Source of the DNA: an uncultured Methanobrevibacter sp.
GTDB taxonomy: Archaea; Methanobacteriota; Methanobacteria; Methanobacteriales; Methanobacteriaceae
Reading direction: 5' to 3'
NCBI RefSeq assembly: GCF_902769175.1
Contig: NZ_CACXNW010000015.1
Span: 1-64,000 of the forward strand
DNA length: 64,000 bases
Part shown: positions 11,541-62,877 of the stretch, in pieces
How positions within the stretch are numbered: the stretch's first letter is position 1
Layout: the number at the start of each line of letters is the position of its first letter
The notes under the pieces: model-generated
Databases searched by the model: none
What the model was told of the DNA's origin: nothing
The model's input: the letters and a program-made list of their open reading frames with translations, nothing else
Made by a program: the position numbers and the translations under genes

Positions 11541-11690
11541 ATTAAATAAGCCCATCACCAATAAAAACAAATATCATCTAATTTTTCCATATTAAATAAG
11601 CCCATCACCAATAAAAACAAATATCATCTAATTTTTCCATATTAAACGAGCCCATCACCATTAAAAGCAAATATCATCTAATTTTTCCAT
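11541..11690. repeat. Three 50-bp tandem copies of the NRPS 3' end
   Basis: Units 11541-11590, 11591-11640 and 11641-11690 are head-to-tail copies. The third contains the real last codons of the condensation-domain frame (MEKLDDICF-stop). The first two are identical to each other and differ from the third by four bases, three of them substitutions near its left end. They are extra copies of the gene end lying in the spacer. They have no spacers between them, so this is not CRISPR. Confidence 0.85.
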
Positions 11691-12878: not shown

Positions 12879-12919
12879 TTCAGATTTAATGTTTTCAATA
12901 AATTCTGTAAAGCCATTAT

Positions 12920-13693
12920 CTATATATATGTGTTTTCAGGATAATTTCCACTAATGGAATAAAAATTATCTAAACGATTAATATTGAAATCAACACCATA
13001 AGTATTATCCTGATTAATTTTAATATCAGATCCCCCTTCTTGAGATAAAACAGAATTATTTTCATCTTTTTGGGACAAATCAGAATTAGTCCCACCTTCT
13101 TGAGACAAATTATGATTAATAGATTTAAATAAATTATTTTCATATTTAAATTCCGTACTTAAGAAATTGAAAGTTACAGGACAGTGCTTATACTCAAATT
13201 CCTCAGAAGTATAAATCAATGAAGCATAATTCAAACCTAAATTATTTATGTCTTTAAATGCAGTTTTGAGTTTATAAACGTCATTTACAATGGAAATGTC
13301 ATCATAATTGATATCAATATCAATTGGAATAGGATATTGGCTAGTAAACCACCCCACGGTTCTGTAAAGTTCTGCAATACTTTCATCACGGCCAAAGGAT
13401 TCGTAATTTAATATAATGTCCTTGGCATATGTCTTTTTATATGCTCTTGCAATAGCCAAAGCCCAGTATTCCTCTTCAGACAACATTAATAAATTGTCAA
13501 CATCATAATCTAGGCCAACTTTGAAATCGAATCTCTTTGCAGTTCCCTTAATTTGAGAATCATCCAACAGATCATTGACTTCCATCCAATGCTCCTTTTC
13601 ATCTTCAGAAATATTATTGGCTAATTCCTTAACATCTTCAATCCATGATTCAAATGAATAGGGCCTATTAAGCTTTAATCTGCTATTTTCCAA
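12920..13693 (-). CDS. NRPS epimerization domain, second half (fragment 3)
   Basis: This frame holds the second half of an epimerization domain, with GRDESIAELYRTVGWFTSQYP at about residues 101-121, the classic epimerase signature. Its TTG start is only apparent. The frame is exactly continuous with the upstream fragment, separated by a single TAA (13706-13708): ILDDLT, stop, IYNHLENSRLKL. A repetitive insert (LSQEGG, LSQKDE, LSQEGG at about 197-222) lies in the domain. The frame ends at a TAG created by an extra TA in a TATATATA run. Confidence 0.75.
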   Translation of the reverse strand: MENSRLKLNRPYSFESWIEDVKELANNISEDEKEHWMEVNDLLDDSQIKGTAKRFDFKVGLDYDVDNLLMLSEEEYWALAIARAYKKTYAKDIILNYESFGRDESIAELYRTVGWFTSQYPIPIDIDINYDDISIVNDVYKLKTAFKDINNLGLNYASLIYTSEEFEYKHCPVTFNFLSTEFKYENNLFKSINHNLSQEGGTNSDLSQKDENNSVLSQEGGSDIKINQDNTYGVDFNINRLDNFYSISGNYPENTYI

Positions 13694-13705
13694 ATGATTG
13701 TAGAT

Positions 13706-16351: not shown

Positions 16352-19300
16352 TTTTGATTAAGGTCTCTCTTACAGTGTCTTTGCCGGATATTGATTGTAT
16401 AAAAGGCAATGTATTTACAAACATTCCCATAGCTTTTTCCAAACTTGGATGTGTTCTTCCGCTTGTTACAGTCCCTATCTGTATAACGGATTCATCAGTG
16501 TACTTATGAAGCAAAACAATAAATTGTGAAAGCAATAATTGGTAAATGGTAGTGTTATTTTCTCTTGCAAGCTTTTCGATAATTTTCTTATCAAATTCAT
16601 AGCTAATCCTATTTCCATTGAAAGTTTGGTTTAGAGACCTCTTAAAATCAGTTGCCAATATAGTCCCATAATCTGAAATTTCCTTGTTTTTCCAATAATC
16701 CTCTTCTAAAGCCTGCTGTTTAAGCACCCAAAGAGAATAATCCTTATATTGAACATCATTGCCCTCTAATGGCTTATCGTAATAAGCATCCTTAATCTTG
16801 CCATACAATAAATCCAGACTTATCTGATCTCCGATTGCGTGGTACATGTCTCTGAAAATGTAATTGTCACCATTAAATTCAATGACTTTTATTCTAAGCA
16901 ATAGATCTGTCTCTAATTTGAATGGTTGAATATTTTCCAAAAACACTTCACCAATATCCTCATCCTCTTCAACTTTAATGAAGTCTACAGCAATAGGCCG
17001 TTTTTCATGGACCCGTTGTATGAAATGACCATTTTCCATATGAAGGGAAGTTCTTAATATCTCTTCAGATCCAATGACCTTGTTTACGCTATCCTCTAAT
17101 TTGGCAATATCAATGGAATTTTCAAGTTTACGGACTTTTGGCAAATTATAGTTAGTCAAACTTGGATTTTTACGGTAAAGGACATACAATCTCTTTTGTT
17201 GAGAGGACATTGGATATTCATTGGAAATTCTTGACTTAGCCTTTTCTATCTCTTCAGTGAATGTCTTTCCATCAATCAATTTTGACAGATTTCTTATTGT
17301 CGGATTGTTCATTAAATCCACATGCTTCAAATGTATTCCAAATTCATGATAAATCTCTGAATTCAACTCCATCAATCTAAGGGATGTAAATCCTAGCTTG
17401 AATAAATTATCGGTGACTCCAAAATTATCATGACCTAATATATTTTTACAGAAATCATAAACCCTTCTTTCAATATCATTGGTTGGCTTTGCATTTTCTG
17501 TGCTTAATTCCGGTTTGGGAAAACTCTTTCGGTCAATTTTTCCACTAGGAGTTTCAGGAAACTTATCCAATTGGATGAAAAAGGTTGGAATCATGTATTG
17601 TGATAGGAATTTCTCTAAATAATCCTTTAAATCTGAAATGTCAATCTTTGTTTCAGAGGTGAAATAGGCACATAAGTGCTTTTCATTGCTTATTTCGTGA
17701 AGCAGGACAATGGCATTCTGAATTTCAGGATATTTGACAATCACCTGTTCAATGTCTTCAGGATCCACCCTTTGACCTCTTAACTTAATTTGATTGTCAA
17801 CCCTTCCCTTAATTATTATTTCATCTGAAGGAAGCTGAATTGCATAATCTCCAGACTTGTAATAAGGCAAACCATTTAGAGAAATAAAGGCTTCTTTGGT
17901 TTTCTCCTCTAAATTCAAATAGCCCTTGCTGACACCTATTCCTCCAATATACAGCTCACCAATTACGCCATAAGGCAATAATTTTCCATCAATATCCCTA
18001 ACATCTGTGACATAATTGTGAATAGGCTTTCCATTTGTTATGAAGTCAGGATTTTCAATTTTTTTAGAATTTGAGGTTAAGCTGGTTTCCAAAGGACCGT
18101 AACCATTATAAATGTCAATATCAGCATATTCCTTAATTGATTCATAAACGTTCTTTGTAAATTGCTCTCCTCCACAGCCCATTCCCTTAAATTGCTTTAT
18201 TGCCTTTCTAAACTCAGGAACCTGGAGATAAGAGAGCACCCTTGAAGGAGTTAAATTCACAAATTCCGGTTTGGTCCTTTCAATCAAATCAGACAATAAG
18301 ACAATGTCTTTAATTTCATCATCACTTGCAAATATCAGTTCCTTATCATTAGTCAATGCCACTAAAATGTCCTCTTCAGAAATGTCAAAGGCAATTGAAG
18401 AGATGGACAATAGGCTTTTAAACCTATTCTTAATATGTACGGAAGTCAAATTGGATATTCCGCAATGAGTTGAAATAACACCTTTCGGATTTCCAGTTGA
18501 ACCTGAAGTGTAAAGGATAAAAATAGGATCATCCACCTTCAGCTCAACATCAGGACAAGTTGGATCCCCTTCATTGATTAGGTCTTGAGGATTGATTGCA
18601 ACATCAATGGATTCATTTGTGATGATGTACCTTGAATTGGAATCATTTCTTATGTAATTTATTCTTTCGATAGGATAATTCATATCCAATGGAATGGCTA
18701 CACATCCTGCCTTGATGATTCCTAAAAAAGTAGTTATTAGAGTCTTATTCCGGGCAAGCATAAAGGATATTGTGCTTCCCTTTTGAATTCCCCTTTTTAT
18801 TAAAGCGTTGGCTATTCTGTTTGCCTCATCATTGACTTGCTTAAATGTATACTCTTCACCGCAAGTCCTTAAGGCAATCTTTCCAGGGGTTTTATTGGCT
18901 TGATCTTCCAATAGAACATTTACTAAAGGGTTTCTTTTAAGTTCATACTTCAATGGGGGCACTTCATCCCTAAGTGCAATATCTTCAATTCTAAGCTTTG
19001 AATCATCAGCAACACCATCACCAAAACCAACACTTGAAGTATCGGCAATGCTAAATTGGTCCAATACCCATTTAATGCTTCTTAAAAATGAATGAATATA
19101 TGAAAAAGTGTATTTGTTAGCATCAAACCTAAATTTCAGCAGATATAAATTAGAGGATTCCTCAACAATTAAGGAATTTTCAGCATCCTCCTCTAAATCG
19201 TTGAAAACATAGGAAAAATAAGAATTTTCATCAAATTGATTTAATTGTTCATAAGCATGTTCTGAATTGGAATAAAGATCCATAAGATTGGCAATATAAT

Positions 19301-19574
19301 CATAGACAGTTCTTTTTCTATCTTCATCATTAAATCTTAAAGGAAACTCTCTTGAATCTTCATCAATCTTAGATTTTACCTTAATAAAAATTTTTGTGCT
19401 ATTGGTGTATTTTGTTAATGTGATGCATGCAGCGGCTAAAAATAGCAAATTTGGATTTGAATCATATTTTAATGCCAAATCATCAATTTTTGATTTGACG
19501 ATGGAAATATCCTCATATTCCACTTTAAGAATCTCATCCTCATTTTTATTTGACATGAGCAATGTAGGCTGCAT
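16290..19574 (-). CDS. NRPS module 1: half C, adenylation, carrier and condensation domain (fragment 1)
   Basis: The 1094-residue frame begins at ATG 19574 with a GTGAT ribosome binding site. Residues about 10-190 resemble only the second half of a condensation domain. Adenylation follows: ILYTSGSTGNPKG (A3), AFDIS (A4 Asp), NGYGPLETS (A5), YYKSGDYAI (A7), GRVDNQIKLRGQRVDPEDIEQ (A8; two motifs run together), PSGKIDRKSFP (A10). The carrier is LFKLGFTSLRLM. The condensation domain has MSSQQKRLYVL but a changed HHxxxDG as YHAIGDQ, keeping the second His and the Asp. The frame ends early at TGA after FSIEQNN, where one extra A breaks the C domain. It lies 68 bases downstream of arcS. Confidence 0.85.
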   Translation of the reverse strand: MQPTLLMSNKNEDEILKVEYEDISIVKSKIDDLALKYDSNPNLLFLAAACITLTKYTNSTKIFIKVKSKIDEDSREFPLRFNDEDRKRTVYDYIANLMDLYSNSEHAYEQLNQFDENSYFSYVFNDLEEDAENSLIVEESSNLYLLKFRFDANKYTFSYIHSFLRSIKWVLDQFSIADTSSVGFGDGVADDSKLRIEDIALRDEVPPLKYELKRNPLVNVLLEDQANKTPGKIALRTCGEEYTFKQVNDEANRIANALIKRGIQKGSTISFMLARNKTLITTFLGIIKAGCVAIPLDMNYPIERINYIRNDSNSRYIITNESIDVAINPQDLINEGDPTCPDVELKVDDPIFILYTSGSTGNPKGVISTHCGISNLTSVHIKNRFKSLLSISSIAFDISEEDILVALTNDKELIFASDDEIKDIVLLSDLIERTKPEFVNLTPSRVLSYLQVPEFRKAIKQFKGMGCGGEQFTKNVYESIKEYADIDIYNGYGPLETSLTSNSKKIENPDFITNGKPIHNYVTDVRDIDGKLLPYGVIGELYIGGIGVSKGYLNLEEKTKEAFISLNGLPYYKSGDYAIQLPSDEIIIKGRVDNQIKLRGQRVDPEDIEQVIVKYPEIQNAIVLLHEISNEKHLCAYFTSETKIDISDLKDYLEKFLSQYMIPTFFIQLDKFPETPSGKIDRKSFPKPELSTENAKPTNDIERRVYDFCKNILGHDNFGVTDNLFKLGFTSLRLMELNSEIYHEFGIHLKHVDLMNNPTIRNLSKLIDGKTFTEEIEKAKSRISNEYPMSSQQKRLYVLYRKNPSLTNYNLPKVRKLENSIDIAKLEDSVNKVIGSEEILRTSLHMENGHFIQRVHEKRPIAVDFIKVEEDEDIGEVFLENIQPFKLETDLLLRIKVIEFNGDNYIFRDMYHAIGDQISLDLLYGKIKDAYYDKPLEGNDVQYKDYSLWVLKQQALEEDYWKNKEISDYGTILATDFKRSLNQTFNGNRISYEFDKKIIEKLARENNTTIYQLLLSQFIVLLHKYTDESVIQIGTVTSGRTHPSLEKAMGMFVNTLPFIQSISGKDTVRETLIKNGEELAKLFANQNFSIEQNN

Positions 19575-23019: not shown

Positions 23020-25626
23020 GTGAATGATTTTGGAGGAGCCCTAATTACCAATAGCAATTCCACTATCACAAACTGCACATTCAAAAATAACCGTGGCCGC
23101 TATGGTGGAGCAGTCAGCATTGCAGACAATAAGTCTTGTCTTTTTATAGACTGCAAATTCATAAACAATGCTGCTTCACTTGGTGGAGGTGCAATATACA
23201 CTTGGAATGGGGAAGGCATATTTGAACAATGTGTTTTCAGCAACTGCACATCACAATTTGGAGGAGCTATCTTTTCATTAAATGGAAATTTGGCCTTAGA
23301 CAATGATATCTTTCATGATAACCAAGCATTTGCTTTTGGTGGAGGAATCTACAAAAAATGGGGAAATTTAAGCATCTATAAAGGAAATTATGCGAATAAC
23401 AGTGCATATTATGATAGAGGAGCTGTGTACATTATAAATGGAACATCCTCTATAGACGGAGCTTTATTTGAAGAAAACTTTGCAAATTATGGTGGAGACT
23501 CAATTCACTCAATTTCTACTGCCCTCAACTTGCATGAGCCACTATTCGAAAACGCTACTGGAAAAACCACCATTGAAACCAAATACATTAATCCATTTAT
23601 TGATTTAGGCAATTACACAATGATTGTATCAAAGATTTCCCATGATTTAGAAAAAATGCCTTCATCCTTTAACCTGGCAGACCATGGATGGGTTACAAGT
23701 GTAAAATCCCAAGGACACACCGGTCTTTGTTGGGACTTCGCTGCGATTGCAGTGGTTGAATCTGCGGTGAAAAAAGCAACAGGAAAAGAACTTGACCTTT
23801 CTGAAAACCATTTGAAAAACATGATAGCTGAGTACTCTTCCTATGGATGGGATAGAGATCCAAATGAGGGAGGAAGCAAATGGACATCATTCCCATACTT
23901 CATTAATGCACTTGGACCTGTTTTGGAAGCCACAGAACCTTTAAAGACCTTTGGATTTTCACCATTGCTAGAAAACGTTCTCCTTGTTTCCAATATTGTA
24001 AACCTTAGCAGAGATAGAGACTTCCCTTTGGATAACTCTCATATTAAACAAGCTATCATGGACTATGGGGCAATTAGAGCCAGCATGAATGCAGACTACC
24101 ATAATGGATACAATTATTATTCATATAAGGAAACCACCACCAATCATGCTGTAGCCATCGTAGGATGGGATGACAATTATGACAAGAAAAAGTTTGGAAA
24201 TAACTGCCCAGAAAACGGAGCTTGGATAGCGAAAAATAGCTGGGGCAAAAATTCCGGCAAAGACGGTTATATCTATATTTCCTACTATGATAAGTCCTTT
24301 GCATATGAAGATTTAATATATGTGGTTTTTAATAATACAATGAAATTTGATAGAATTTACCAATATGACTATGGACTCTATAGGGATGAAATATGCCCAG
24401 ATTCTTATGTAGCATATAAAAATGTTTACACAAGCATTAACGACGAGGACATCGGTGCAGTTTCAACATTTTTCTATGGAAACACTAATTGGACAGTTTC
24501 TGTATATGTAGGGGATAAATTACAGCACAAGCAATCTGGATGGACTGAAGACGTAGGTTACTTTACAATTAATTTGGATAAGCAAATTCGTGTAAAGAAA
24601 GGACAGAATTTTTCAGTTGCCATAGAAGTGAATAAAAAGATAATGCCATGCGTAAATAAAGATTTAAATAGTTTAACTTGTGGTAAAGGAGCATCTTATG
24701 TTTATTTATCTTCAAGCAAGAAATGGACTGGCTTAAATGATCAAAAAACTCCTTGTGTTGCAATAATAAAAGTCTACACTATAAATAAGGCTTCTGAAGA
24801 TGTTATATATCCACTTGATAATGTAATTTACGGAAGTCCCGTCAACGTTACTTTCGACACTGAAAATCGCACTGCTATAAATTACCTCCTTAAAAAAGAT
24901 GGAGAAATAATCTCATCAATGGAAGACATCAATGGAAATGAAATCATATTACCTGATTTGGAAATTGGAAATTATGAAATTACCATCAATTTCATAGGTA
25001 CTGAATCCAATAAATCAGTTTCCTATTGTGCTAATTTCACAGTGAATAAAATTCCATCTCTGATTGAAATTGAAGACATTAGTCCAATAATCTATGGAAA
25101 CAATCTAACTGTCAATTTCAATACTTCAAACATAAGCAATAATATATTCACTTATAGAGTTGCATATGATGGATTGAGAAAGGTAATGAATGAAACCTAC
25201 ATATCAAATGGAACAAACAATAGCATCACTCTCCCTACTTTAGATGCAGGTGATTATACAATCACAATCTATACTGGTGGAGATGACATGAATGCAAACA
25301 GCAGCGCATCCCATAACTTTACCATATCAAAAATCACTCCAACAGTGACAATTGACATTTGTAAAGAAAATAGTGAAGGAGAGCTTAAATTCAATGTAAC
25401 AAGTGATGTTAGAGAATCATACTTGATTAGAATAGGAGAAAAAGGCAGATTTGTAGGTTTTACTAGGGCAGATTCAAAAATATGTACATTAAATGATATT
25501 CCTGATGGAAATTATACCCTAAGCCTTGAATCTACAGGAACACTCAACCTCAATAAAGTTAAGAAATTATATAATGTTACAGTGGATAGGACAGCTTCCA
25601 TTTTTACAATGCAACCTGTCGAATAA
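23020..25626 (+). CDS. Secreted beta-helix / papain-like cysteine protease / Ig-like protein, main fragment
   Basis: The GTG start is artificial, since the frame continues the preceding fragment. Residues 1-190 are polymorphic-membrane-protein-like beta-helix repeats (GGA, FxNN). A papain-family (C1A) domain follows, with oxyanion Gln and catalytic Cys in SQGHTGLCWDFAA (about 232-240), His in NHAVAIVGWDDNY (about 375) and Asn in KNSWGKNSGKDGY (about 406). Residues about 600-868 are Ig-like repeats (YGSPVNVTF, YGNNLTVNF, LDAGDYTITI). Similar adhesin-like proteins are plentiful in Methanobrevibacter. It probably acts at the cell surface on peptides, but its target is unknown. No membrane or pseudomurein anchor is visible at the C-terminus. 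Confidence 0.8.
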   Translation: MNDFGGALITNSNSTITNCTFKNNRGRYGGAVSIADNKSCLFIDCKFINNAASLGGGAIYTWNGEGIFEQCVFSNCTSQFGGAIFSLNGNLALDNDIFHDNQAFAFGGGIYKKWGNLSIYKGNYANNSAYYDRGAVYIINGTSSIDGALFEENFANYGGDSIHSISTALNLHEPLFENATGKTTIETKYINPFIDLGNYTMIVSKISHDLEKMPSSFNLADHGWVTSVKSQGHTGLCWDFAAIAVVESAVKKATGKELDLSENHLKNMIAEYSSYGWDRDPNEGGSKWTSFPYFINALGPVLEATEPLKTFGFSPLLENVLLVSNIVNLSRDRDFPLDNSHIKQAIMDYGAIRASMNADYHNGYNYYSYKETTTNHAVAIVGWDDNYDKKKFGNNCPENGAWIAKNSWGKNSGKDGYIYISYYDKSFAYEDLIYVVFNNTMKFDRIYQYDYGLYRDEICPDSYVAYKNVYTSINDEDIGAVSTFFYGNTNWTVSVYVGDKLQHKQSGWTEDVGYFTINLDKQIRVKKGQNFSVAIEVNKKIMPCVNKDLNSLTCGKGASYVYLSSSKKWTGLNDQKTPCVAIIKVYTINKASEDVIYPLDNVIYGSPVNVTFDTENRTAINYLLKKDGEIISSMEDINGNEIILPDLEIGNYEITINFIGTESNKSVSYCANFTVNKIPSLIEIEDISPIIYGNNLTVNFNTSNISNNIFTYRVAYDGLRKVMNETYISNGTNNSITLPTLDAGDYTITIYTGGDDMNANSSASHNFTISKITPTVTIDICKENSEGELKFNVTSDVRESYLIRIGEKGRFVGFTRADSKICTLNDIPDGNYTLSLESTGTLNLNKVKKLYNVTVDRTASIFTMQPVE

Positions 25627-52947: not shown

Positions 52948-53244
52948 TCTCTTTTTAAATTTTTATCTCAAATTTTTGCTATTTTTTACTTTTAGAGAAT
53001 ATGAATTTTTATAATTTTAATCTATATCTTGCTATTTTTTACTACTTTTATAATAATTAATTGGTTTATGTAGATTATGGAATTGATAATAAATAAAAAA
53101 TGAATTTGAATTAATTTAATTGAAAATAAGATTAATTAAAAATAGGTTTACTATATATAACTATGATTTAATAATAGCTAAAATTAAAATAATGAAAGGA
53201 AAATTTGTTATGAAAAATAGAAAAATAATAGATAAACAATTTAG
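52948..53244. other. Convergent A/T-rich spacer
   Basis: No open frame is visible. TTGCTATTTTTTACT occurs twice (52975 and 53028). T-runs after the TPR gene act as its terminator. Confidence 0.45.
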
Positions 53245-54441
53245 TTATCTATTATAAAATTCATTAATTCTTGGAATGAAAACTTTTTTAAATTTTTCCA
53301 CATTATTACTATGCCAAGTAAATGCATCTTCCCATTCCTCCTTATTTTTTACATTATTTCTATGAGTAATGAAAATATCTGAAAACCATTTACCTTCCTT
53401 CCAATTTAAACTGCAACCAAATTCTTCTTCAATTTCTCTTTTTTGGGAAATAAAGAAATTGTATATGCTCTTATTTAATGCAAGAGTTATTTTAATCTGA
53501 TGTTTATTATGATAGGCATTTAAAATAAAACGTACTTCATCCCATGCATAATTATTCAAAACAAATGGATAATGAGACCAAGGATGATGAACATCCATTG
53601 GGAAAAGATTTGATTTATCTAAACGATAATCTAATTCTTTCCAATATTGTGCACGAAGATTTTCAGAATCCATAACTTTAGGATTCTTTAAACAGAAATC
53701 TTTTATTAAAGAAGAGAATACATCATAAAACCTCTTTGCAACAGAAATATGCCAATGCATAGCATCTTCCCATAAATCCTTATTATTAATATCGGTTAAA
53801 TTATAAATAACAATCTGATAAGGGTTAGAAAGATTTTCTCCTTTTACTTTAAAGCCCAATTCTTTTTCAATGTGATCTAATTTATTTTCTAAGAACTTAT
53901 ATAAATCGCCATTCCAAGCAATAAAAAGTTTCACTTTAATATAGCCAGCAAAAATCATCATTTCTATACGTGCTAAATTTAATGGTATATCATCAATAGG
54001 CATCCAAAAAATATGATTATTAAACTTAATAAAATGTCCATCAAATAGATTATTTTCAATAATCTTACTTCCTACATTTTGCCAGTAATCCTGAACATCA
54101 CAAATATCATTTACATTTGCAGTAATTCTTTCTGCTTCTTTATTGTCCCAAATATTACCGTCCCATATTTCAGACCTTATTGGAAAAATAAACTTTTCAT
54201 TTAAACCTTTTAAAACTGGGTCTTCTCCTGAATCAGAAGACAAAGTAGAATTAAGTAGGGAATTTTCATCTTCCAAATCCAAATTCTCAAGCCTTAAATC
54301 CTGTCCACAATTATAACAAAACTTAGAACCTTTAATAACTAATTCAGCACCACAATTAAAACAATATTTTAATTTAATATCCATCTCTTCATCAACCCTT
54401 AAATCTTCTTGTGAATTATTTTCATAATTATCATTTTCCAA
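53245..54441 (-). CDS. Zinc-ribbon protein with two DUF4268-like domains
   Basis: The 398-residue protein has an N-terminal zinc ribbon (CFNC at 27-30, CYNC at 42-45), then two copies of a DUF4268-like domain (about 115-260 and 265-398), each ending in a W-E-D-A-x-x-W-H line (KDLWEDAMHWHISVAKRFYDVF and EEWEDAFTWHSNNVEKFKKVF, differing by spacing). DUF4268 occurs in restriction or defence settings but has no proven activity. The only starts in frame are TTG 54441 and non-standard codons upstream, and there is no clear ribosome binding site. The upstream helicase may therefore be frameshifted or the gene translationally coupled. Confidence 0.7.
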   Translation of the reverse strand: MENDNYENNSQEDLRVDEEMDIKLKYCFNCGAELVIKGSKFCYNCGQDLRLENLDLEDENSLLNSTLSSDSGEDPVLKGLNEKFIFPIRSEIWDGNIWDNKEAERITANVNDICDVQDYWQNVGSKIIENNLFDGHFIKFNNHIFWMPIDDIPLNLARIEMMIFAGYIKVKLFIAWNGDLYKFLENKLDHIEKELGFKVKGENLSNPYQIVIYNLTDINNKDLWEDAMHWHISVAKRFYDVFSSLIKDFCLKNPKVMDSENLRAQYWKELDYRLDKSNLFPMDVHHPWSHYPFVLNNYAWDEVRFILNAYHNKHQIKITLALNKSIYNFFISQKREIEEEFGCSLNWKEGKWFSDIFITHRNNVKNKEEWEDAFTWHSNNVEKFKKVFIPRINEFYNR

Positions 54442-54446
54442 AACTT

Positions 54447-57400
54447 CTAAGACTTCATCAATAACATTACCTCATTCGCATTTAGCTCATCTTCAGAAAC
54501 ATCAACATCCAAAAACTTATCAAAAATATTATCCTTCTCTTCATCTGATTTGTCAAAATCTTCATTATCTGATGAATTTTCAATTTCTTCTATTTCCTCA
54601 CAATCTATTTCAAAATCTTCAACATCTTCCTTATAGTAAGGACTTAAATTAATAAATAAATCATTGATATTCTTCATCAAATCCTCATTTTCCAAAGTGG
54701 AATTAAAAATAGATTCTATAAGCTCCTCTTGCCTTGCTTGACCTAAAGTCAAACGATACAAAGATAAAAACTTAATTAATCTATCATACCTGATTTCATC
54801 TCTGCTGAATGGATACATAGGAACTATCCTTTCTATTTTAATCATGTCATCAGAGTCCTTTAAACCCCAATATGGAATTAAGTCTGAACAATCATCAACC
54901 TTTTCGATTTCACTTGCCTTATGGAATAACTCTAACCAAATGTTATTTGTATTGAATTTCATCTCACCATATCTTTTAGCAAGATTTTGACGAATGGCCA
55001 AACATTCAAACCTATTGATCCTACCTTCTCTTTGCTCTAAATCAATTGGATTTGAAGGCAAATTCCAATGAACTATCCTTCTGCAGTAATTGTGGAAATC
55101 AAGACCTTCCTGACCTATTGAAGTTGAAGCTAAAACAAAAGGCCTAAATGGTGCATTAAATGCACCCCTAACTGATTTTTTCCTATTGGTATCACTGTCA
55201 TCAGTTCTTCCTTTAGTAAAAGCAACTGCAAAATGAGTCCTTAAATAATTCACATCTTTGCTCTTTCCAGACATCCTTGAATTAAAACTATTGAATGTGT
55301 CAATATCATAAGAAGCAATTCTTAAATCCATTGAAGACAATAATTTGGCATTGATGATTTCAATCCTATTTTCATTACTTACATCTAAACCATTAGACAA
55401 TAAATGAACATATTCATCAAAAACAGCTTGCAAATTACCTTGCTTAGAATACTTTAAGACATTACGCCAGTAAGCATCATCCAAATCTGATTTGAAGATT
55501 AAATCAATCACGGAAATTGATTCTGGACTATTCATTAGATTTAAAAACCTTCTTGCAACCTGTGTAGTGTACTTAACATATTGGTCAATAGATTCTATTT
55601 CAAATAAAGATTCAAATGGCAAAGCATTATGAGCTAAATCCCTATCAATAAAACCACTAGAAATCAAATCATATTTAGACACTTTAGTTCTCTTGACAAT
55701 TTTATTTATTGACTTGACGTCTAAAAAGTCATCAACTGAACTTGCTTTTCCTGCAACAATATGTCCAATTAACCCTTTTTCAATTAGATCCTCAAGAGTT
55801 AATTTCCTATTAGCCAATTCTCGATTATATGATCGGTAAATACAGATAGCTGGAGATGCAATTGACATATCACACAAAACATCAACTAAATCTTTAGGTC
55901 TTTTGCCTAAAAGTGATTCACCATTATAAAAACTGTTGAATTTTTCTTCCAGCCTATCTAAATGCTTTAAGAAACCTTTTTGCTTGTCTTCCCTAAATAA
56001 TTCATTAACATCCTTAAACCACATATCAACAAAATTATGAGAATCAGAACCCTCTAAATATGAATTATCCAACAATAACGGAGACAAATAATACCATGAA
56101 GGGTCTTCAGGCAAAGATTCGTCATATGGAATATTATCTAGCTCTTTTCGTATTTTCTCTTTAATTTCTTGTTCAATATCCTCCAGTGACAATTTCCTGT
56201 TTAAGCAATCAATAGGATTATAAGCATCAATTAAAAATTTTGAAGGATAAATTAAGGTAAGCAAAGCCATTTGAGCAGGTTTTCCTTCCCTTAAATCAAA
56301 ATTTAATCTAGGTGAAGGATATCTTCTTTGAGCAAAATAATTTATATCCCTATTTAATTTTCCTATTGTTTTTCTCTCCACTTCATAAGAAACCAAACTT
56401 GAAATCATTCTAGGAACCATTTCCCAAGAGGAGAAAATCAAGGTCTTTGAAAAATTATCTGTGTCCTTAAATGCACCTTCTAATGGATAATAAGGTTTTG
56501 ATGGAGGAATCCACAGTAATTTTTCTGCATTATCCTTTAAAACATGACCCATCAAATCAATTAAGCGAGCATTATTATAAGAAATTGCATTATAATTAGC
56601 AATATCCTTTTCATTTAACCAAAATGTATCTTTATTCATTTTGTAAATTTCTTGAGGATTTCTTTTAAAATAGGACTCAATTCGCCTTTTTAATTTATAA
56701 TTCTTCATGAATGACATTAAATAAGGACTTGATTTTACATAATCAATAGGCACATTAATTCCCAACTCCAAATCATCCAATAGCTTTTGAGCCTCTATGA
56801 ATGAAAGAATATCCTCCTTAAGAACAGATAATGGCTTTTTAACATCATCATTATCAATAATATCAGATAACTGATTTTCTGTAATTCTTTCAGTTCTGCA
56901 AATATTTTTATACATGGAATTTTCTGCTTTAGCCTTTGCAACTATGAAAGAATCCTTATCATTAGCAAATTCCTTTAATTTGATTGAATAATCATTCCAA
57001 ACCTCTTTAAACTTAATTTTTTCATTTGGACAGACATTCAAGAAATTCATCACTTCAAAAAATTCTGAGAAGTGAGCATCAATTTGCTCTTCATCAATTT
57101 CATCAAGGGTGGAATACATCTTATATGGAGTAGCGGATAACATAAGAATCCTTACATCATCTGAATTGAAGAATTTAGCAGTTAATTTGCCCATTTCAGA
57201 CTCTTTATCACTGTTTAATAAGTATCTGAACCTTTGAAACTCATCCATAATTATTATATCTGGCTCTAATTTATTCAAGGAAATATCTGAAAAGATTAAT
57301 CTCAATTCCACAATAAATGGTTTTGCTTCAGATTTATCAAAACCATATCTCTTAATTCTTTTACAAAGCTTAATTAAGTCTTTTAAAAGATTTTCATTGC

Positions 57401-58103
57401 TGAAATGTGGATTTAGCAATATTTTTTCCTGTTTAGGAGAGTTATTCTTTAAATAATCGGAAATTTCCTTAACCATATACTTTTCATATTTGCCCTTAGA
57501 TTTTGCATTAACTTCCAAAAATTGATTTTCAAAGGAATCCCTAGCATCAGGCCAAGAAGCAGTGGCAAAACGAAATATTTGGTCCAATTGTTCAGCATAG
57601 GATCTTAACCTAGGAACTCTTTTTAATATGGCATAAATTAAAGCCCTTTCATTCATGGTCCCTTGAGAATTAGAAACTTTGAAAGAAGTTTGAGGAGTTA
57701 AAGGAATGAGCTGAATATACTTATCTAAGACTTTTGTATCGTTTTCCTGCTTAAAAATATTTAAATGCTGCATTGATAGCCTGGAAGTATGAGTGTCTTC
57801 AGCACGTATTTCATTTACAATCCTCAATTTATCAAGGTTTTGATCAGCAATTGTTGCATTGGAACAAATATAAACAACCTTTACTAAATCATCACCTTCT
57901 TCTTTTCTTAATTTAGCAAACTTGGCAATAGTTCCACGAGCAACTAAAGTCTTTCCCAATCCAACTTCATCTGAAACCAGAATACGTCTTTGACCTTTTC
58001 TATAAAGATAATCTATTCTTTCAACTGTAGCTCTTTGAAAATCCTTTAATTCTGCCATGACAGTATCTTCGATATCATCTAAGCGATTGAATATGCTTCC
58101 CAT
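54447..58103 (-). CDS. SNF2-type DNA helicase of a defence-like cassette
   Basis: This large protein (about 1218 residues from ATG 58103, ribosome binding site AGGTGG) has helicase motif I in SDEVGLGKTLVARG (about residue 43-56), motif II as IIMDEFQRFRYLL (about 284), motif III in LMLSATPYKMYS (about 317) and motifs V-VI in STSIGQEGLDFHN and EQREGRINRFE (about 990-1030). The long middle region has no recognisable domain, and the C-terminus is very acidic. DEFQ and QREGRINR are typical of SNF2-like ATPases from restriction and defence systems. It starts one base after the PLD gene stop. Confidence 0.82.
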   Translation of the reverse strand: MGSIFNRLDDIEDTVMAELKDFQRATVERIDYLYRKGQRRILVSDEVGLGKTLVARGTIAKFAKLRKEEGDDLVKVVYICSNATIADQNLDKLRIVNEIRAEDTHTSRLSMQHLNIFKQENDTKVLDKYIQLIPLTPQTSFKVSNSQGTMNERALIYAILKRVPRLRSYAEQLDQIFRFATASWPDARDSFENQFLEVNAKSKGKYEKYMVKEISDYLKNNSPKQEKILLNPHFSNENLLKDLIKLCKRIKRYGFDKSEAKPFIVELRLIFSDISLNKLEPDIIIMDEFQRFRYLLNSDKESEMGKLTAKFFNSDDVRILMLSATPYKMYSTLDEIDEEQIDAHFSEFFEVMNFLNVCPNEKIKFKEVWNDYSIKLKEFANDKDSFIVAKAKAENSMYKNICRTERITENQLSDIIDNDDVKKPLSVLKEDILSFIEAQKLLDDLELGINVPIDYVKSSPYLMSFMKNYKLKRRIESYFKRNPQEIYKMNKDTFWLNEKDIANYNAISYNNARLIDLMGHVLKDNAEKLLWIPPSKPYYPLEGAFKDTDNFSKTLIFSSWEMVPRMISSLVSYEVERKTIGKLNRDINYFAQRRYPSPRLNFDLREGKPAQMALLTLIYPSKFLIDAYNPIDCLNRKLSLEDIEQEIKEKIRKELDNIPYDESLPEDPSWYYLSPLLLDNSYLEGSDSHNFVDMWFKDVNELFREDKQKGFLKHLDRLEEKFNSFYNGESLLGKRPKDLVDVLCDMSIASPAICIYRSYNRELANRKLTLEDLIEKGLIGHIVAGKASSVDDFLDVKSINKIVKRTKVSKYDLISSGFIDRDLAHNALPFESLFEIESIDQYVKYTTQVARRFLNLMNSPESISVIDLIFKSDLDDAYWRNVLKYSKQGNLQAVFDEYVHLLSNGLDVSNENRIEIINAKLLSSMDLRIASYDIDTFNSFNSRMSGKSKDVNYLRTHFAVAFTKGRTDDSDTNRKKSVRGAFNAPFRPFVLASTSIGQEGLDFHNYCRRIVHWNLPSNPIDLEQREGRINRFECLAIRQNLAKRYGEMKFNTNNIWLELFHKASEIEKVDDCSDLIPYWGLKDSDDMIKIERIVPMYPFSRDEIRYDRLIKFLSLYRLTLGQARQEELIESIFNSTLENEDLMKNINDLFINLSPYYKEDVEDFEIDCEEIEEIENSSDNEDFDKSDEEKDNIFDKFLDVDVSEDELNANEVMLLMKS

Positions 58104-58104
58104 A

Positions 58105-59922
58105 TTAATCAACCACCTGTTTAAAAGTATTATAAAGATCTTCAAACCCATCAGGAATTACATCATCATCAGAAAGAGTTTTTATTAAAAATTCCAATTC
58201 ATCAAATTTCTCAGGAGCATAAAGTGAAGCCTTTAGCATCTTTTCATATAATTCCGGCAATTGCATTCTAAAGCTTAGATTAGCAGAGCCTAATCCATCC
58301 ATCATTTCAGATTCCATAACACTAATAATATAGTCATCCCCAAGCAAAAAAGCGACATATCTGATAAATGCTTCCTTGTCATTAACAACAGAGGAAATTA
58401 CTTCTTTTTCCCTGTCTTCAGGTAAACCAGATACAGGAACTTTAATTACTCGTTCTATAGAAGATTCTCCCTCTTCAGTCTTTTCGTATACAGAAACAAC
58501 AAAAAATTCAGATAATCTAATTTTATCAATGTTTTTAAAGCAAATTTTTCTTTCAAATTTAGACTTCTTCTTTGATAATAACGGCCTAATCTCAATTTTA
58601 TAATCTTTAAATTTTGCAATGAAATCTTCTTTCAACTTATTGAAGCATAATCCAATATTATATGAATTTTCATTAAATGCAATACAGGCTTTAGGATTTG
58701 AACGACTGATGGCTTTAACAATTAAGCTCAAGTCATTATTTTCAGGAGCTTCTTTTTCATCAGCAAACTTCTCAATATTCACTAATTGAAATGGACTATT
58801 AGGACCTCCCTTTTCACCATCAAACAAAGCTTCAGACAATAGCTTAAGGTTTAACTTATCACTTCTTGCCCTAAGCCTAATCATAAATTCAACATTACCG
58901 TCTAAAGCATTATATGAAGCATTTAAAGAACCTAAATACAAATCTGTCAAATTCCCATGCCTTACCATAAACATTTTAGCATGTATATCATGTTTAATAA
59001 TTTCATTTTTAGAATTCTCATCAGATTCCTCAGAAATTAATGATTCACCATCAATAATTTGGTCCTTTAAGGAAAAGATTTCGAAATTGCCGCAATCCTT
59101 CTCTGTAAAGCCGTTTAATGAATTTTCTCTTGTAAAAAGCATTGCCTTATCATTATTGATATTCTCATTAAATGCCCTAATAATTATCTTACTTAAAAAT
59201 GGAGACATGATCAAAAGTTCATCAAAGGATTCATTGAATAAAGGATAGTCACTTATAGAGTAATCCCCAATCCCATTAGGAATAAAGTCAAAATCATAAA
59301 AGTCATTGGAGTTCAATTCGAAACGAACGAATTGCAGTTCATCAATAACTGCAGAGATTTTGGAACTCTTTTCATCATTTTTAGAGAACTCCTTCAAATA
59401 AGCTAAAAAATCGATTATAGGATTATTTTTATCTGTTCTTTCTTCACTTTTAAACCCATCCATAGAAAAACTAATATCCCAACTCCTATCAAAAGTGAGA
59501 TTTCTGCTTAAGACAACAACCCTATAAAGAACATTATTCTCTTCATCAACATATCTCAACAACCAAAATTTCGGATGAAATGAAGCATATTTGCTTTGAA
59601 TAAGTTTAGAGTTGCTTACCTGAAATACCATTTCTTCAAGTAAAATATACAAAGGATTTGGTTGATTTGGAAGGTGAATCTGACCACCTTCACAGAATAA
59701 AATAACTTTATCAGCAGTTGTGCGTAAAGCCTCCAATAAAAAAATGGGATTATTGATAAGATTAGTGTCAGTCTCTTCAGATAAACCTAAAGATATTGCT
59801 GCACCTACTAAAGCATCCAAATCTAGGGAATATGTAGTTCCTATTGCAAAATCCAATTGATAATTATTTGGAGGAGATAAAATATCTCCATAATCTAAAC
59901 GGTTATTGTTAGGATTTAACAT
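58105..59922 (-). CDS. Phospholipase-D-like nuclease-family protein of the cassette
   Basis: The 605-residue protein has two HxK half-sites expected of PLD-family phosphodiesterases and nucleases: FHPKFWLLRYV, followed by VVVLSRNLT (about 114-140), and HAKMFMVRHG, followed by LYLGSLNAS (about 309-330). Position and length match PLD proteins accompanying helicases in DISARM and similar systems. It starts directly on the stop of the previous gene, with GGAGGGG inside it. The final ~200 residues have no known domain. Substrate is inferred to be DNA. Confidence 0.72.
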   Translation of the reverse strand: MLNPNNNRLDYGDILSPPNNYQLDFAIGTTYSLDLDALVGAAISLGLSEETDTNLINNPIFLLEALRTTADKVILFCEGGQIHLPNQPNPLYILLEEMVFQVSNSKLIQSKYASFHPKFWLLRYVDEENNVLYRVVVLSRNLTFDRSWDISFSMDGFKSEERTDKNNPIIDFLAYLKEFSKNDEKSSKISAVIDELQFVRFELNSNDFYDFDFIPNGIGDYSISDYPLFNESFDELLIMSPFLSKIIIRAFNENINNDKAMLFTRENSLNGFTEKDCGNFEIFSLKDQIIDGESLISEESDENSKNEIIKHDIHAKMFMVRHGNLTDLYLGSLNASYNALDGNVEFMIRLRARSDKLNLKLLSEALFDGEKGGPNSPFQLVNIEKFADEKEAPENNDLSLIVKAISRSNPKACIAFNENSYNIGLCFNKLKEDFIAKFKDYKIEIRPLLSKKKSKFERKICFKNIDKIRLSEFFVVSVYEKTEEGESSIERVIKVPVSGLPEDREKEVISSVVNDKEAFIRYVAFLLGDDYIISVMESEMMDGLGSANLSFRMQLPELYEKMLKASLYAPEKFDELEFLIKTLSDDDVIPDGFEDLYNTFKQVVD

Positions 59923-61164
59923 TTAGAGCCCCTCCATTTTACTGCCATTATCCTCTAAAACATATTTCTCCACAATATCTGGAGTTTCACTTTCAAAAAT
60001 ATCCCTTATGATGTTTTTAGCATTATTGAATCGATAATCCAAATATCCTCCAGCAAACCATAAATCTTTATCAAATTCCCCAGGATGAGCTGTTTTGGAC
60101 CTATTTTGTCCTTTCAGCATAAGTTCTCTAGATTTTATAATATTTTTTAAGCCTTCATAATCCTCATTTTTCATCAAATCTCTAGATTTAATTAAAAAAG
60201 TTCTTAGATGAGGATTATATATTTTTAAAGAAGCAAATATCTCTTCAATATCCACTTGAGCAAAATTTGATAAATCAGGCTTTAATGACGCAAACTCCTT
60301 TTTTGCAGTTTCATTTTCCCCTTCTGAGACTATTAAATTATAAATTACCCTCAAAACAAAGATAAATTCTGAAAATGACCTTGCCCTATAATAATCCTTT
60401 TGGATTTTTTCTGGAAATTTCCCAATAATACCTTTTAAATCCCTGAAAGAAGCATATTCTAAAATTTCGTACATATTGTCCTTTAAAATATGGACCATCA
60501 TACTATCTCCACAACTGGAAATGATTTGGCTTTTCAGAAATTGTCCCTCTTCTGGAGTTAGATTCATATCAAATTCATTTTTCCACTTTGGATTATAAGA
60601 AGGAATATTTAAAAAATGAACCTTTTGACCAACACCAGCATTCTTGTCATCATGCTCTTCTTCATTATCCTCATTATTTCCTAATTTAAGAATATTTGAT
60701 TTTTTCTGTTTTTGAAAGGCGATTATTTTGATATATTGGTCAATGGAAATATTTGCCCTAAAGATTTGATATTTTCTAAGACCTGCCCAATAAATGCTTG
60801 CAGGAGTTCTTTTAACCCATTTATTAGCAGCTATGGATCTTCTACCTATAATTCCCCTTTCATGAAAATTTATATCCAATAAGGTTCTCGCACATTTCTC
60901 TTCTGTATCATCCAAATTTCTTTTTAATTTACTAAAGCTCTTTTCATTATTTAATTCTAAGTCTTTTAGAGCATAAGGAACAATGAAAAAGTACTTTGCT
61001 CGAGTTTGGATAGTGGAAGTTCCTGGAAAAAACAAGTCTGAAAATCTATCTCGAATAGGCGCTATTCCCAATTCATCAAGAACTCCAAGTTCTGTTAATA
61101 AATCTAAAACATTTAAAATTTTCTCTCTTTCTGATTTTGAAAAATCTATCCATCCCAATTCCAT
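59923..61164 (-). CDS. DUF6361-like protein of the cassette
   Basis: This 413-residue protein resembles the uncharacterised DUF6361 family. The N-terminus reads MELGWIDFSKSEREKILNVLDL, and there are conserved-looking segments FPGTSTIQTRAKYFFIVPYAL and RGIIGRRSIAANKWVKRTPASIYWAGLRKY (split at KRTPA). No known catalytic motif is seen. It is the first gene of the cassette; its stop codon touches the start of the PLD gene, and together they form one translationally coupled unit. Confidence 0.6.
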   Translation of the reverse strand: MELGWIDFSKSEREKILNVLDLLTELGVLDELGIAPIRDRFSDLFFPGTSTIQTRAKYFFIVPYALKDLELNNEKSFSKLKRNLDDTEEKCARTLLDINFHERGIIGRRSIAANKWVKRTPASIYWAGLRKYQIFRANISIDQYIKIIAFQKQKKSNILKLGNNEDNEEEHDDKNAGVGQKVHFLNIPSYNPKWKNEFDMNLTPEEGQFLKSQIISSCGDSMMVHILKDNMYEILEYASFRDLKGIIGKFPEKIQKDYYRARSFSEFIFVLRVIYNLIVSEGENETAKKEFASLKPDLSNFAQVDIEEIFASLKIYNPHLRTFLIKSRDLMKNEDYEGLKNIIKSRELMLKGQNRSKTAHPGEFDKDLWFAGGYLDYRFNNAKNIIRDIFESETPDIVEKYVLEDNGSKMEGL

Positions 61165-61259
61165 ATAATGCCCCTTTTTTAAAATAAGTAATTAATAATC
61201 TATTTATAAAAATATATAAAATTATTTAAAAAAAGAAAAGGCTTAAAAAAAGCCTAAAA

Positions 61260-61931
61260 TCAAAACTCCAAATTGTCAATTGCCTTAACTAATTTTTCAC
61301 TTAAGTCATATGTCCTTTCCATAGGTTCATAGGAATAGGTTTCATAAACAATTGTTGGAATACCGCTTTCCACAACCGGAATTGTAATATAAGGTGGGCT
61401 TGCTCTATACTCTGGAGCATAATAAACAAGTTCCTCAATTTTCTCTAATATCACCTTCAATCGATTGCTTGACTCATCATCAAATCCTGGAGCAAAAATG
61501 AAATTGGTTTTTTCATAGGTTCCAGGTCCCTTTAAGCCTTTATTGCTGTGAATATCTGCAAAGAAATCATATTTGCTATTGATTATATGTGGTGCAGCAA
61601 ACTCTTGAGCAAGCAATTGGCCATCCATACGACCTTCTGTTTCTGCATCAAGCTCTCCAGCCACATTTATATTGTAAATATAATATGTATAGTTTAAAAG
61701 TCCCTTCTTATCCCATTCTACTATTGTATCAAATAATCCTCTATGTGCCTTGCTTTCCATTGGATGCATGCCAATCAAATAGGCAATTTCTACATTAGAC
61801 TTTGAATTCCCATAAGGTCCATGAACATGAACCGTTCCCAAGTCGTTTTCTCCAATCAGTTCTGCATCATACATGGAAGAATCTACTTTAGCCACATCTG
61901 TTGGTTCTTGAGGATAATCTTTCCTAAACAT
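61260..61931 (-). CDS. M14-like zinc carboxypeptidase paralogue, soluble form
   Basis: The 223-residue protein contains GMHPMES, where HPME fits the HxxE zinc motif of M14 metallopeptidases, and FADIHSN, a third zinc histidine. It also has GRMDGQLLAQEFAAPHI and the PPYITIPVVESGIPTIVYET stretch in common with the next gene. It resembles hydrolases of the M14 or succinylglutamate-desuccinylase kind. It lacks the membrane helix of its neighbour, so it is probably cytosolic. The substrate is unknown. Confidence 0.65.
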   Translation of the reverse strand: MFRKDYPQEPTDVAKVDSSMYDAELIGENDLGTVHVHGPYGNSKSNVEIAYLIGMHPMESKAHRGLFDTIVEWDKKGLLNYTYYIYNINVAGELDAETEGRMDGQLLAQEFAAPHIINSKYDFFADIHSNKGLKGPGTYEKTNFIFAPGFDDESSNRLKVILEKIEELVYYAPEYRASPPYITIPVVESGIPTIVYETYSYEPMERTYDLSEKLVKAIDNLEF

Positions 61932-61945
61932 TTATACACTCTCAC

Positions 61946-62061
61946 TATTCCATTAAACTTTTTATAACCACTTGTCTTAAAATTCCAAACTATCCACTGC
62001 ATCTATTCCATTAAACTTTTTATAACCACTTGTCTTAAAATTCCAAACTATCCACTGCATC
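61946..62061. repeat. Perfect 58-bp duplication of a gene 3' end
   Basis: The 58-base unit at 61946-62003 is exactly repeated at 62004-62061. The second copy includes the last codons of the following M14-like gene (stop 62035-62037). The first is a spacer copy. The perfect identity indicates a recent event. Confidence 0.9.
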
Positions 62062-62877
62062 TACAAACTTATCCATCAAATCATAGGTTGTATTGATTGG
62101 CTCAAAGGAATATGTTTCATAATTTACAGTTGGAGTTCCTGCCTGCTCTACCGGCAATGTAATGTAAGGAGGGCTGGACTGTGCATTTGGGAAATAATAA
62201 ACAAGTTCAGGCATCTTATTTAAGATCTTGTTTACAATCACTTCTGACTTTTCATCTTTTCCCACTGCAAAGACAAAGTTAGTCTCTTCATATGACCCTT
62301 CAACAGTTCCCTTATTGCTGTGAACATCCACAAACAAATCATAATCATTCTTGATTATATGAGGAGCCACAAACTCTTGAGCAAGAAGCTGACCATCCAA
62401 TCTGCCTTCATCATCTGTATTGTAATTTGTCACATTGATTTTGTAGATATAATAACAATAATCCAATGAACTGTCTTTAGACTTTACAGTATCAAATAAA
62501 GCCTTATGAGATTTGCTTTCAAAAGGATGCATTCCTATCGAATAGGCTATTTTCCTATCAGAATTTGGATTTCCAAAAGGACCTAATAACTCTACAGTCC
62601 CCAAATCATTGCTTCCAAGCAATTTTGAATTTACATTAGACGAATCTATTTTAGCTTCTGCTGTAGGCCCATCAGGATAGGATTGGTTAATGTAAATGTC
62701 CTTATTTTTTGCTATATTTTCAGTTGAAGAACTGAAATCATCATCATTTGCTATAGCATTAAGACTTGAAGTGCTGGAATTTTTCAAAGATATTGCATAT
62801 CCGAAAAATATTATAGCAAAGGCTAAAATAATCACTAAAATAAGTATTAGCTTTGATTTATTGTTATCAGGAATCAT
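62035..62877 (-). CDS. M14-like zinc carboxypeptidase paralogue, membrane-anchored
   Basis: This 280-residue protein has an N-terminal membrane helix (residues about 9-31, LILILVIILAFAIIFFGYA) and an extracellular domain with GMHPFES (HxxE) and FVDVHSN (third His). It shares GRLDGQLLAQEFVAPHI and PPYITLPVEQAGTPTVNYET with the soluble paralogue. A role in trimming wall peptides is possible because Methanobrevibacter has a pseudomurein wall, but no test of this is available from sequence. The next copy is 100 bases downstream, so the pair arose by duplication. Confidence 0.65.
   Translation of the reverse strand: MIPDNNKSKLILILVIILAFAIIFFGYAISLKNSSTSSLNAIANDDDFSSSTENIAKNKDIYINQSYPDGPTAEAKIDSSNVNSKLLGSNDLGTVELLGPFGNPNSDRKIAYSIGMHPFESKSHKALFDTVKSKDSSLDYCYYIYKINVTNYNTDDEGRLDGQLLAQEFVAPHIIKNDYDLFVDVHSNKGTVEGSYEETNFVFAVGKDEKSEVIVNKILNKMPELVYYFPNAQSSPPYITLPVEQAGTPTVNYETYSFEPINTTYDLMDKFVDAVDSLEF

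What the first reader, a model, noticed from the sequence alone, without database searches (positions are those of the whole stretch)
53245..61164. Coupled four-gene cassette (DUF6361-like, PLD, SNF2 helicase, zinc-ribbon DUF4268) that looks like an unassigned defence system
Three genes are joined with zero- or one-base gaps and strong internal ribosome binding sites; a zinc-ribbon double-DUF4268 gene follows. SNF2-type helicase (DEFQ, QREGRINR) plus PLD nuclease is the pairing found in DISARM (DrmD and DrmC), but no methyltransferase, DrmA or DrmB is seen. It could be a methylation-independent nuclease/helicase system in methanogens. Defence is inference, since no gene here has a proven immune role.
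Basis: partly seen in the sequence, partly recalled or inferred. Interest (0 to 1): 0.8.

Follow-up and report, generated by a model that had tools for sequence, protein, structure and literature searches.

The report
Archaeal Azaca defence operon plus DUF4268
A methane-producing archaeon carries a known but mechanistically unexplained virus-defence operon (Azaca: a helper protein, a DNA-cutting enzyme and a DNA motor) with an extra fourth gene whose domain is fused to the motor protein in a related archaeon, so the fourth gene is probably a real add-on part of the system.

Summary
The genes are real and at the stated coordinates, but the cassette is not unassigned. Genes 1-3 are a complete Azaca system: the PADLOC models ZacA, ZacB and ZacC match end to end at 3e-89, 2e-147 and 5e-300. 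It is not DISARM. Catalytic motifs of the PLD nuclease and the SF2 motor are conserved in 15-16 homologues. In five species of the same genus the flanking genes are contiguous with no Azaca between them, so a block of about 8 kb holding exactly these four genes was inserted here. Azaca occurs in only 6 of 152 species of the phylum.

The new part is gene 4 (zinc ribbon plus two DUF4268 domains). In a related archaeon a DUF4268 domain is fused to the C-terminus of ZacC, and in the tree that domain is the sister (99/98) of gene 4's first DUF4268. Only these two ZacC proteins have long C-terminal extensions. A predicted DUF4268 model resembles YbjN and type III-secretion-chaperone folds, a peptide-binding class. 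Best reading: Azaca with a DUF4268 accessory that binds the ZacC tail and/or a trigger protein. The fold and the trigger are inference. Novelty: new variant of a known kind.

The parts
59923..61164 (-). zacA (DUF6361), 413 aa, predicted all-helical subunit
   Evidence: PADLOC ZacA E=3.3e-89, residues 3-392 of the protein to 5-393/396 of the profile; Pfam DUF6361; 30 invariant columns in 17 homologues
58105..59922 (-). zacB, PLD-superfamily nuclease, 605 aa, both HxK half-sites in one chain
   Evidence: PADLOC ZacB E=1.9e-147 over 1-604; H116-P-K118..N141 and H314-A-K316..G331-S-x-N334 invariant in 16 homologues
54447..58103 (-). zacC, SF2 (SNF2/RapA-like) helicase or translocase, 1218 aa
   Evidence: PADLOC ZacC E=5.3e-300 over profile 6-1017/1019; DEVGLGKT, DEFQRF, SATPYK, GQEGLDFH and DLEQREGRINR motifs largely invariant in 15 homologues
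54447..54638 (-). 63-residue acidic C-terminal tail of ZacC, absent from 13 of the 15 ZacC proteins compared
   Evidence: tail lengths after the last conserved core residue: window 63, L073 214 (holding DUF4268), all others 20 or fewer
53245..54441 (-). gene 4: zinc ribbon plus two DUF4268 domains, proposed Azaca accessory
   Evidence: Pfam DUF4268 E=6.3e-17; PDC-S11 C-terminal part only; lies inside the inserted block
54295..54369 (-). zinc ribbon of gene 4 (residues 25-49, two CxxC pairs)
   Evidence: Pfam Zn_ribbon_3 E=1.4e-5, 24.8 bits against a cut-off of 27
53662..54129 (-). DUF4268 copy 1 of gene 4, sister of the DUF4268 fused to ZacC in G161
   Evidence: 99/98 support; 36% identity to the fused domain over 150 columns
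53245..53679 (-). DUF4268 copy 2 of gene 4; AlphaFold2 model has a T3SS-chaperone/YbjN-like topology
   Evidence: pLDDT 85; Foldseek top hits YbjN, AmyR, ExsC, best E=5e-3, TM about 0.5
61171..61256 (-). upstream region: terminator-like hairpin of the deacylase gene (61239-61255), A/T-rich TATA-like stretch about 61200-61225, Shine-Dalgarno of zacA (61171-61180)
   Evidence: read from sequence; hairpin; the TATA assignment is inference
53225..61256 (.). inserted block relative to empty sites in five relatives (left edge 53222-53236, right edge 61201-61256)
   Evidence: blastn against L114-L118: window sequence up to 53222-53236 and again from 61201-61293 (62035 in L117) aligns to loci that hold only the flanking genes

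Best explanation
This is a complete Azaca anti-virus operon (zacA-zacB-zacC) in a methanogen, extended by a DUF4268 accessory gene. Proposed working: ZacC, an ATP-driven SF2 translocase, engages invading DNA; ZacB, a PLD-type nuclease with two HxK half-sites, cuts it; ZacA is a helical adaptor or regulator that couples or restrains the two. Gene 4 is a non-nucleolytic adaptor: a zinc ribbon and a tandem pair of chaperone-like DUF4268 domains that bind a peptide segment, either the 63-residue acidic tail of ZacC, a viral protein, or both, tethering or licensing the ZacC motor. Shown: family identity, intact motifs, operon layout, insertion as one block, a homologous DUF4268 fused to ZacC in a relative. 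Inferred: DNA cleavage, ZacA's role, peptide binding by DUF4268, the trigger.
For: Full-length PADLOC matches for all three Zac proteins. Conserved PLD and SF2 motifs across archaea, Bacillota, Cronobacter and Halomarina. Same gene order in the intact loci read. Four-gene block absent from five relatives with otherwise contiguous flanks. ZacC-DUF4268 fusion in G161, 1268 aa, one open frame. The fused domain and gene 4 copy 1 are sisters at 99/98 among 22 DUF4268 domains. Extended ZacC tails only in the window and G161. In bacterium G394, zacABC is followed by a PRiA4-type gene and then a DUF4268 gene on the same strand. DUF4268 model topology matches the alpha-beta3-alpha-beta2-alpha fold described for DR1245, YbjN and T3SS chaperones. 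Homologous loci lie beside type I R-M, McrB-like or PLD_Helicase genes.
Against: Most Azaca loci have no DUF4268, so it is not essential to Azaca. Co-occurrence at genome level is weak (3 of 6 against 17 of 146 in the phylum, p=0.03) and not seen in Bacillota (1 of 10 against 27 of 389). Gene 4 has a weak ribosome site and a TTG start. The fold match rests on a model only, Foldseek E no better than 5e-3. No experiment shows activity in an archaeon.
Confidence: 0.72

Rival explanations
1. Genes 1-3 are an ordinary three-gene Azaca and gene 4 is an independent single-gene defence candidate (PDC-S11-like) that happens to sit next to it in a defence island.
For: PADLOC lists DUF4268 proteins as a stand-alone candidate, PDC-S11. 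In G135 the DUF4268 gene is about 18 kb from Azaca among other genes. Most Azaca loci lack it. Weak ribosome site and separate start in the window.
Against: Gene 4 lacks the N-terminal nuclease-like half of PDC-S11. Its first DUF4268 is specifically sister to the ZacC-fused one. It is 5 bp from zacC and came in the same inserted block. By rough arithmetic of my own, about 0.001 such adjacencies are expected by chance in the 6 Azaca genomes of the phylum; two were seen.
Confidence: 0.2
2. The cassette is a DISARM-like or otherwise unassigned nuclease-helicase system.
For: Weak SF2 similarity of ZacC to DrmD, DpdE, BrxH; a PLD nuclease beside an SNF2-type helicase.
Against: ZacC matches its own model with about 950 bits more than DrmD; the NCBIfam DrmD score is 55.6 bits against a cut-off of 610; no DrmC match for ZacB and no DrmA, DrmB or methyltransferase gene in the cassette.
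Confidence: 0.03
3. The operon is a decayed or non-defence DNA-processing cassette.
For: No activity data in any archaeon; the ZacA fold has no PDB or viral structural match.
Against: All four frames are intact with catalytic residues conserved; sporadic distribution, plasmid-borne relatives, defence neighbours.
Confidence: 0.05

Closest known systems
Azaca (ZacA-ZacB-ZacC; Millman et al. 2022)
   Same: Same three proteins end to end, same order, same coupling; same predicted PLD nuclease and SF2 helicase
   Different: Adds a fourth gene with a zinc ribbon and two DUF4268 domains, and a 63-residue acidic ZacC tail; archaeal host. A 2026 paper quotes Azaca in 2 of 382 complete archaeal genomes (PMC13321033)
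PDC-S11 (PADLOC candidate, stand-alone DUF4268 protein)
   Same: Carries the DUF4268 domain
   Different: PDC-S11 proteins have a conserved N-terminal PD-(D/E)XK-like half (D-I-L-A..I-E-N-Q), read by eye from the alignment; gene 4 lacks it and has a zinc ribbon and a second DUF4268
GmrSD type IV restriction enzymes with C-terminal DUF4268
   Same: DUF4268 appended to the C-terminus of a DNA-acting defence enzyme (PMC4619093; seen in L102, L105, L106)
   Different: Unrelated enzyme (DUF262/DUF1524); its DUF4268 lies outside the Azaca-type branch
DISARM class 1
   Same: PLD protein and SNF2-type helicase
   Different: No DrmA, DrmB or methyltransferase; ZacB and ZacC are not DrmC and DrmD
Hachiman (HamAB)
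   Same: Works-like comparison only: helicase sensor holding a nuclease effector (PMC12278908)
   Different: Different protein families; no membership implied
TY-chaperones (YbjN / T3SS class I chaperone superfamily; Iyer et al. 2022)
   Same: Model of DUF4268 has the same secondary-structure order; TY-chaperones are already reported in conflict systems, some as two tandem copies (PMC9503650)
   Different: No sequence match; similarity rests on one predicted model with modest scores

Membership tests
Azaca | ZacA homologue over full length | tested here: met
   PDLC03828 E=3.3e-89, profile 5-393/396
Azaca | ZacB homologue with two PLD half-sites | tested here: met
   PDLC03829 E=1.9e-147; HPK and HAK motifs invariant in 16 proteins
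Azaca | ZacC homologue with intact SF2 motifs | tested here: met
   PDLC03830 E=5.3e-300; motifs conserved in 15 proteins
Azaca | three genes adjacent, order A-B-C | tested here: met
   0-bp and 1-bp gaps
Azaca | protection against phage or virus | not testable with these tools
   Reported for bacterial Azaca in the literature (Millman et al. 2022, as cited in PMC10952713 and PMC10121019); not tested for archaeal copies here
DISARM | DrmA, DrmB and a DNA methyltransferase | tested here: not met
   None among the cassette genes
DISARM | DrmC (PLD) and DrmD (SNF2) identity | tested here: not met
   ZacB has no DrmC match; NCBIfam DrmD 55.6 bits against cut-off 610
PLD_Helicase / phospholipD_antiphage (fused single protein) | PLD and helicase in one chain | tested here: not met
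   Separate genes; NF042964 30.1 bits against cut-off 1100
PDC-S11 | full-length protein including the N-terminal nuclease-like half | tested here: not met
   Gene 4 matches only profile positions about 170-313 of 318
TY-chaperone (YbjN/T3SS chaperone) fold | alpha-beta3-alpha-beta2-alpha fold | tested here: inconclusive
   Model topology fits and the top ten PDB hits are all YbjN-type or T3SS-chaperone proteins, but E is no better than 5e-3 and TM about 0.5

The most novel reading that the evidence does not exclude
DUF4268 is a portable peptide-binding (TY-chaperone-like) sensor or adaptor domain that several unrelated DNA-targeting defence systems share: fused to ZacC or supplied in trans in Azaca, appended to GmrSD, and attached to a PD-(D/E)XK-like nuclease in PDC-S11. 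It would give Azaca a protein trigger and would explain a domain of unknown function across at least three system types.
Probability: 0.3. Interest if true: 0.7.

Novelty: new variant of a known kind. Interest (0 to 1): 0.42.

Why it matters
Azaca is one of the reported anti-phage systems whose mechanism is listed as unknown (PMC12926258). A natural ZacC-DUF4268 fusion plus a split version gives a direct handle on how ZacC is controlled or targeted, and the shared DUF4268 domain links Azaca, GmrSD and PDC-S11 through one testable module. It also adds archaeal Azaca loci and shows that one entered a methanogen genome as a single block.

Tried and rejected
Unassigned system: rejected, genes 1-3 are Azaca. 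DISARM: rejected. Gene 4 as a PDC-S11 nuclease: rejected, it lacks the nuclease-like half. Sequence relatives of solved structures: none credible for any of the four proteins. ZacA fold: all-helical model, no PDB or viral structural match. Virus-borne Azaca: no relative in IMG/VR by pattern scan; one 'phage' record carries it, but it has no annotation and a type I R-M gene beside zacA, so it may be host DNA. Target-site duplication or integrase at the insertion: none recognised. A fourth gene shared by all Azaca loci: none; G102 has a zinc-ribbon protein without DUF4268, G394 a PRiA4 protein, G576 a HAD-like PDC-S34 protein. Genome-level enrichment of DUF4268 with Azaca: marginal in archaea, none in Bacillota.
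Full report
OBSERVATION. Four minus-strand genes lie at 53245-61164 as described. Gene junctions are 0 bp (zacA/zacB) and 1 bp (zacB/zacC); gene 4 starts 5 bp (TTG) or 62 bp (ATG) after zacC. Ribosome sites before the first three genes are strong, before gene 4 weak. Pfam gives DUF6361, a weak PLD-like domain, ResIII/Helicase_C, and DUF4268 twice with an N-terminal zinc ribbon just under cut-off.

IDENTITY. The PADLOC models ZacA, ZacB and ZacC match the first three proteins over their full lengths at E=3.3e-89, 1.9e-147 and 5.3e-300. This is the Azaca system of Millman et al. 2022, listed as such in later papers (PMC10952713, PMC10121019, PMC12278908). DISARM fails: no DrmA, DrmB or methyltransferase gene in the cassette, no DrmC match, and the NCBIfam DrmD model scores 55.6 bits against a cut-off of 610.

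CONSERVATION. In alignments of 15-17 homologues from methanogens, Bacillota, Halomarina, Cronobacter and (ZacC only) Caballeronia, ZacB keeps both HxK half-sites (H116-P-K118 with N141; H314-A-K316 with G331-S-x-N334) and ZacC keeps the SF2 motifs (DEVGLGKT, DEFQRF, SATPYK, GQEGLDFH, DLEQREGRINR). ZacA has an invariant N-terminal cluster (D30, E31, G33, R38, D39, F46-P-G48, T51, T54, Y58). Its AlphaFold2 model is all-helical (pLDDT 82) and matches nothing in PDB or the viral library. No solved structure is related by sequence.

DISTRIBUTION AND MOBILITY. ZacA occurs in 6 of 152 species genomes of the phylum and in 3 of 19 of the genus, in 10 of 399 genomes of the phylum of the Ruminococcus locus, and on plasmids. 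In five congeneric species the flanking genes (anaerobic-RNR-activase-like radical SAM, TPR protein, deacylases, GlmM-like; names from sequence and synteny) are contiguous with no Azaca between them. The alignments break at window 53222-53236 and resume at 61201-61256 (best cases L115, L116), so the inserted block is about 8 kb and holds exactly the four genes. No integrase or target-site duplication was recognised. ZacC and ZacB trees place methanogen Azaca together (100/100 and 100/99), sister to a rumen Ruminococcus locus and a human-gut contig, consistent with transfer between bacteria and archaea sharing a gut. Homologous loci sit beside type I restriction, McrB-like and PLD_Helicase genes.

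GENE 4. Four observations tie the DUF4268 gene to Azaca. (1) It came in the same inserted block. (2) In archaeon G161 (L073 4043-7849) a DUF4268 domain forms the C-terminus of a 1268-residue ZacC in one open frame. (3) In a tree of 22 DUF4268 domains, gene 4 copy 1 and that fused domain are sisters at 99/98, apart from nuclease-type (PDC-S11) and GmrSD-type DUF4268. (4) Of 15 ZacC proteins only these two extend beyond the conserved core by more than 20 residues: 63 acidic residues in the window, 214 in G161. In bacterium G394 a DUF4268 gene follows zacABC and one other gene on the same strand. Against this, most Azaca loci have none, co-occurrence at genome level is marginal in the phylum (3/6 against 17/146, p=0.03) and not seen in Bacillota (1/10 against 27/389). 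So DUF4268 is an optional accessory, not a core part.

WHAT DUF4268 MAY DO. A 22-row model of gene 4 copy 2 (pLDDT 85) shows alpha-beta3-alpha(alpha)-beta2-alpha. Its best PDB matches are YbjN, AmyR, ExsC and other T3SS chaperones (best E 5e-3, TM about 0.5). That order matches the topology given for DR1245, a YbjN-like protein that binds the ssDNA-binding protein DdrB (PMC3575483). Iyer et al. 2022 group these as peptide-binding 'TY-chaperones' and report them, also as tandem pairs, in conflict systems (PMC9503650). I infer that gene 4 binds a peptide segment; the acidic ZacC tail is the obvious candidate, a viral protein the second. The match is suggestive, not proof: a single model, no E-value below 1e-3. 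DUF4268 is also fused to GmrSD (PMC4619093) and to a PD-(D/E)XK-like half in PDC-S11 (motif read by eye), so it is attached to several unrelated DNA-acting defence enzymes. No paper in the held library was found to link DUF4268 to Azaca or to YbjN.

MECHANISM (inferred). ZacC translocates on invading DNA, ZacB cuts, ZacA couples or restrains them, gene 4 tethers or licenses ZacC through peptide binding. A helicase-sensor/nuclease-effector logic is documented for Hachiman (PMC12278908) and is used here only as a works-like comparison.

VERDICT. Known system, new variant. My estimates: family identity about 0.97; gene 4 as a functional accessory about 0.75; peptide-binding role about 0.35.

Noticed in passing
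window 61260-62877: Two tandem paralogous deacylase-like genes (223 and 280 aa) without any Pfam match, conserved as one or two copies next to a GlmM-like gene across the genus; in G010 (L117) only fragments remain.
   Followed up: partly
window 11661-19574: Non-ribosomal peptide synthetase genes (condensation, AMP-binding and carrier domains) next to an MFS/POT transporter in a methanogen.
   Followed up: no
window 23020-25626: Large papain-family cysteine protease with a lectin-like domain.
   Followed up: no
L085 2262-9965 (G000 contig C11): A second defence cluster of the same genome: type II REase-like pair, a Hhe/PDC-S37-like helicase of 907 aa and a full PDC-S11 DUF4268 protein in a row.
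   Followed up: partly
L074 70-5999 (G291): A 1555-aa DEAD-box helicase with an MrfA-type zinc-binding domain about 11 bp upstream of zacA, a possible link between Azaca and the YprA-helicase systems.
   Followed up: no
L089 9989-11227 (Caballeronia plasmid): zacA is annotated as short pieces in a stretch with IS elements nearby, while zacB and zacC stay intact.
   Followed up: no
L071 4505-5299 (G102): A different fourth gene, overlapping zacC by 4 bp, with a C-terminal zinc ribbon and no DUF4268.
   Followed up: partly
L109, L113, L107: Stand-alone DUF4268 proteins of about 140 aa in other methanogens; neighbours not examined.
   Followed up: no
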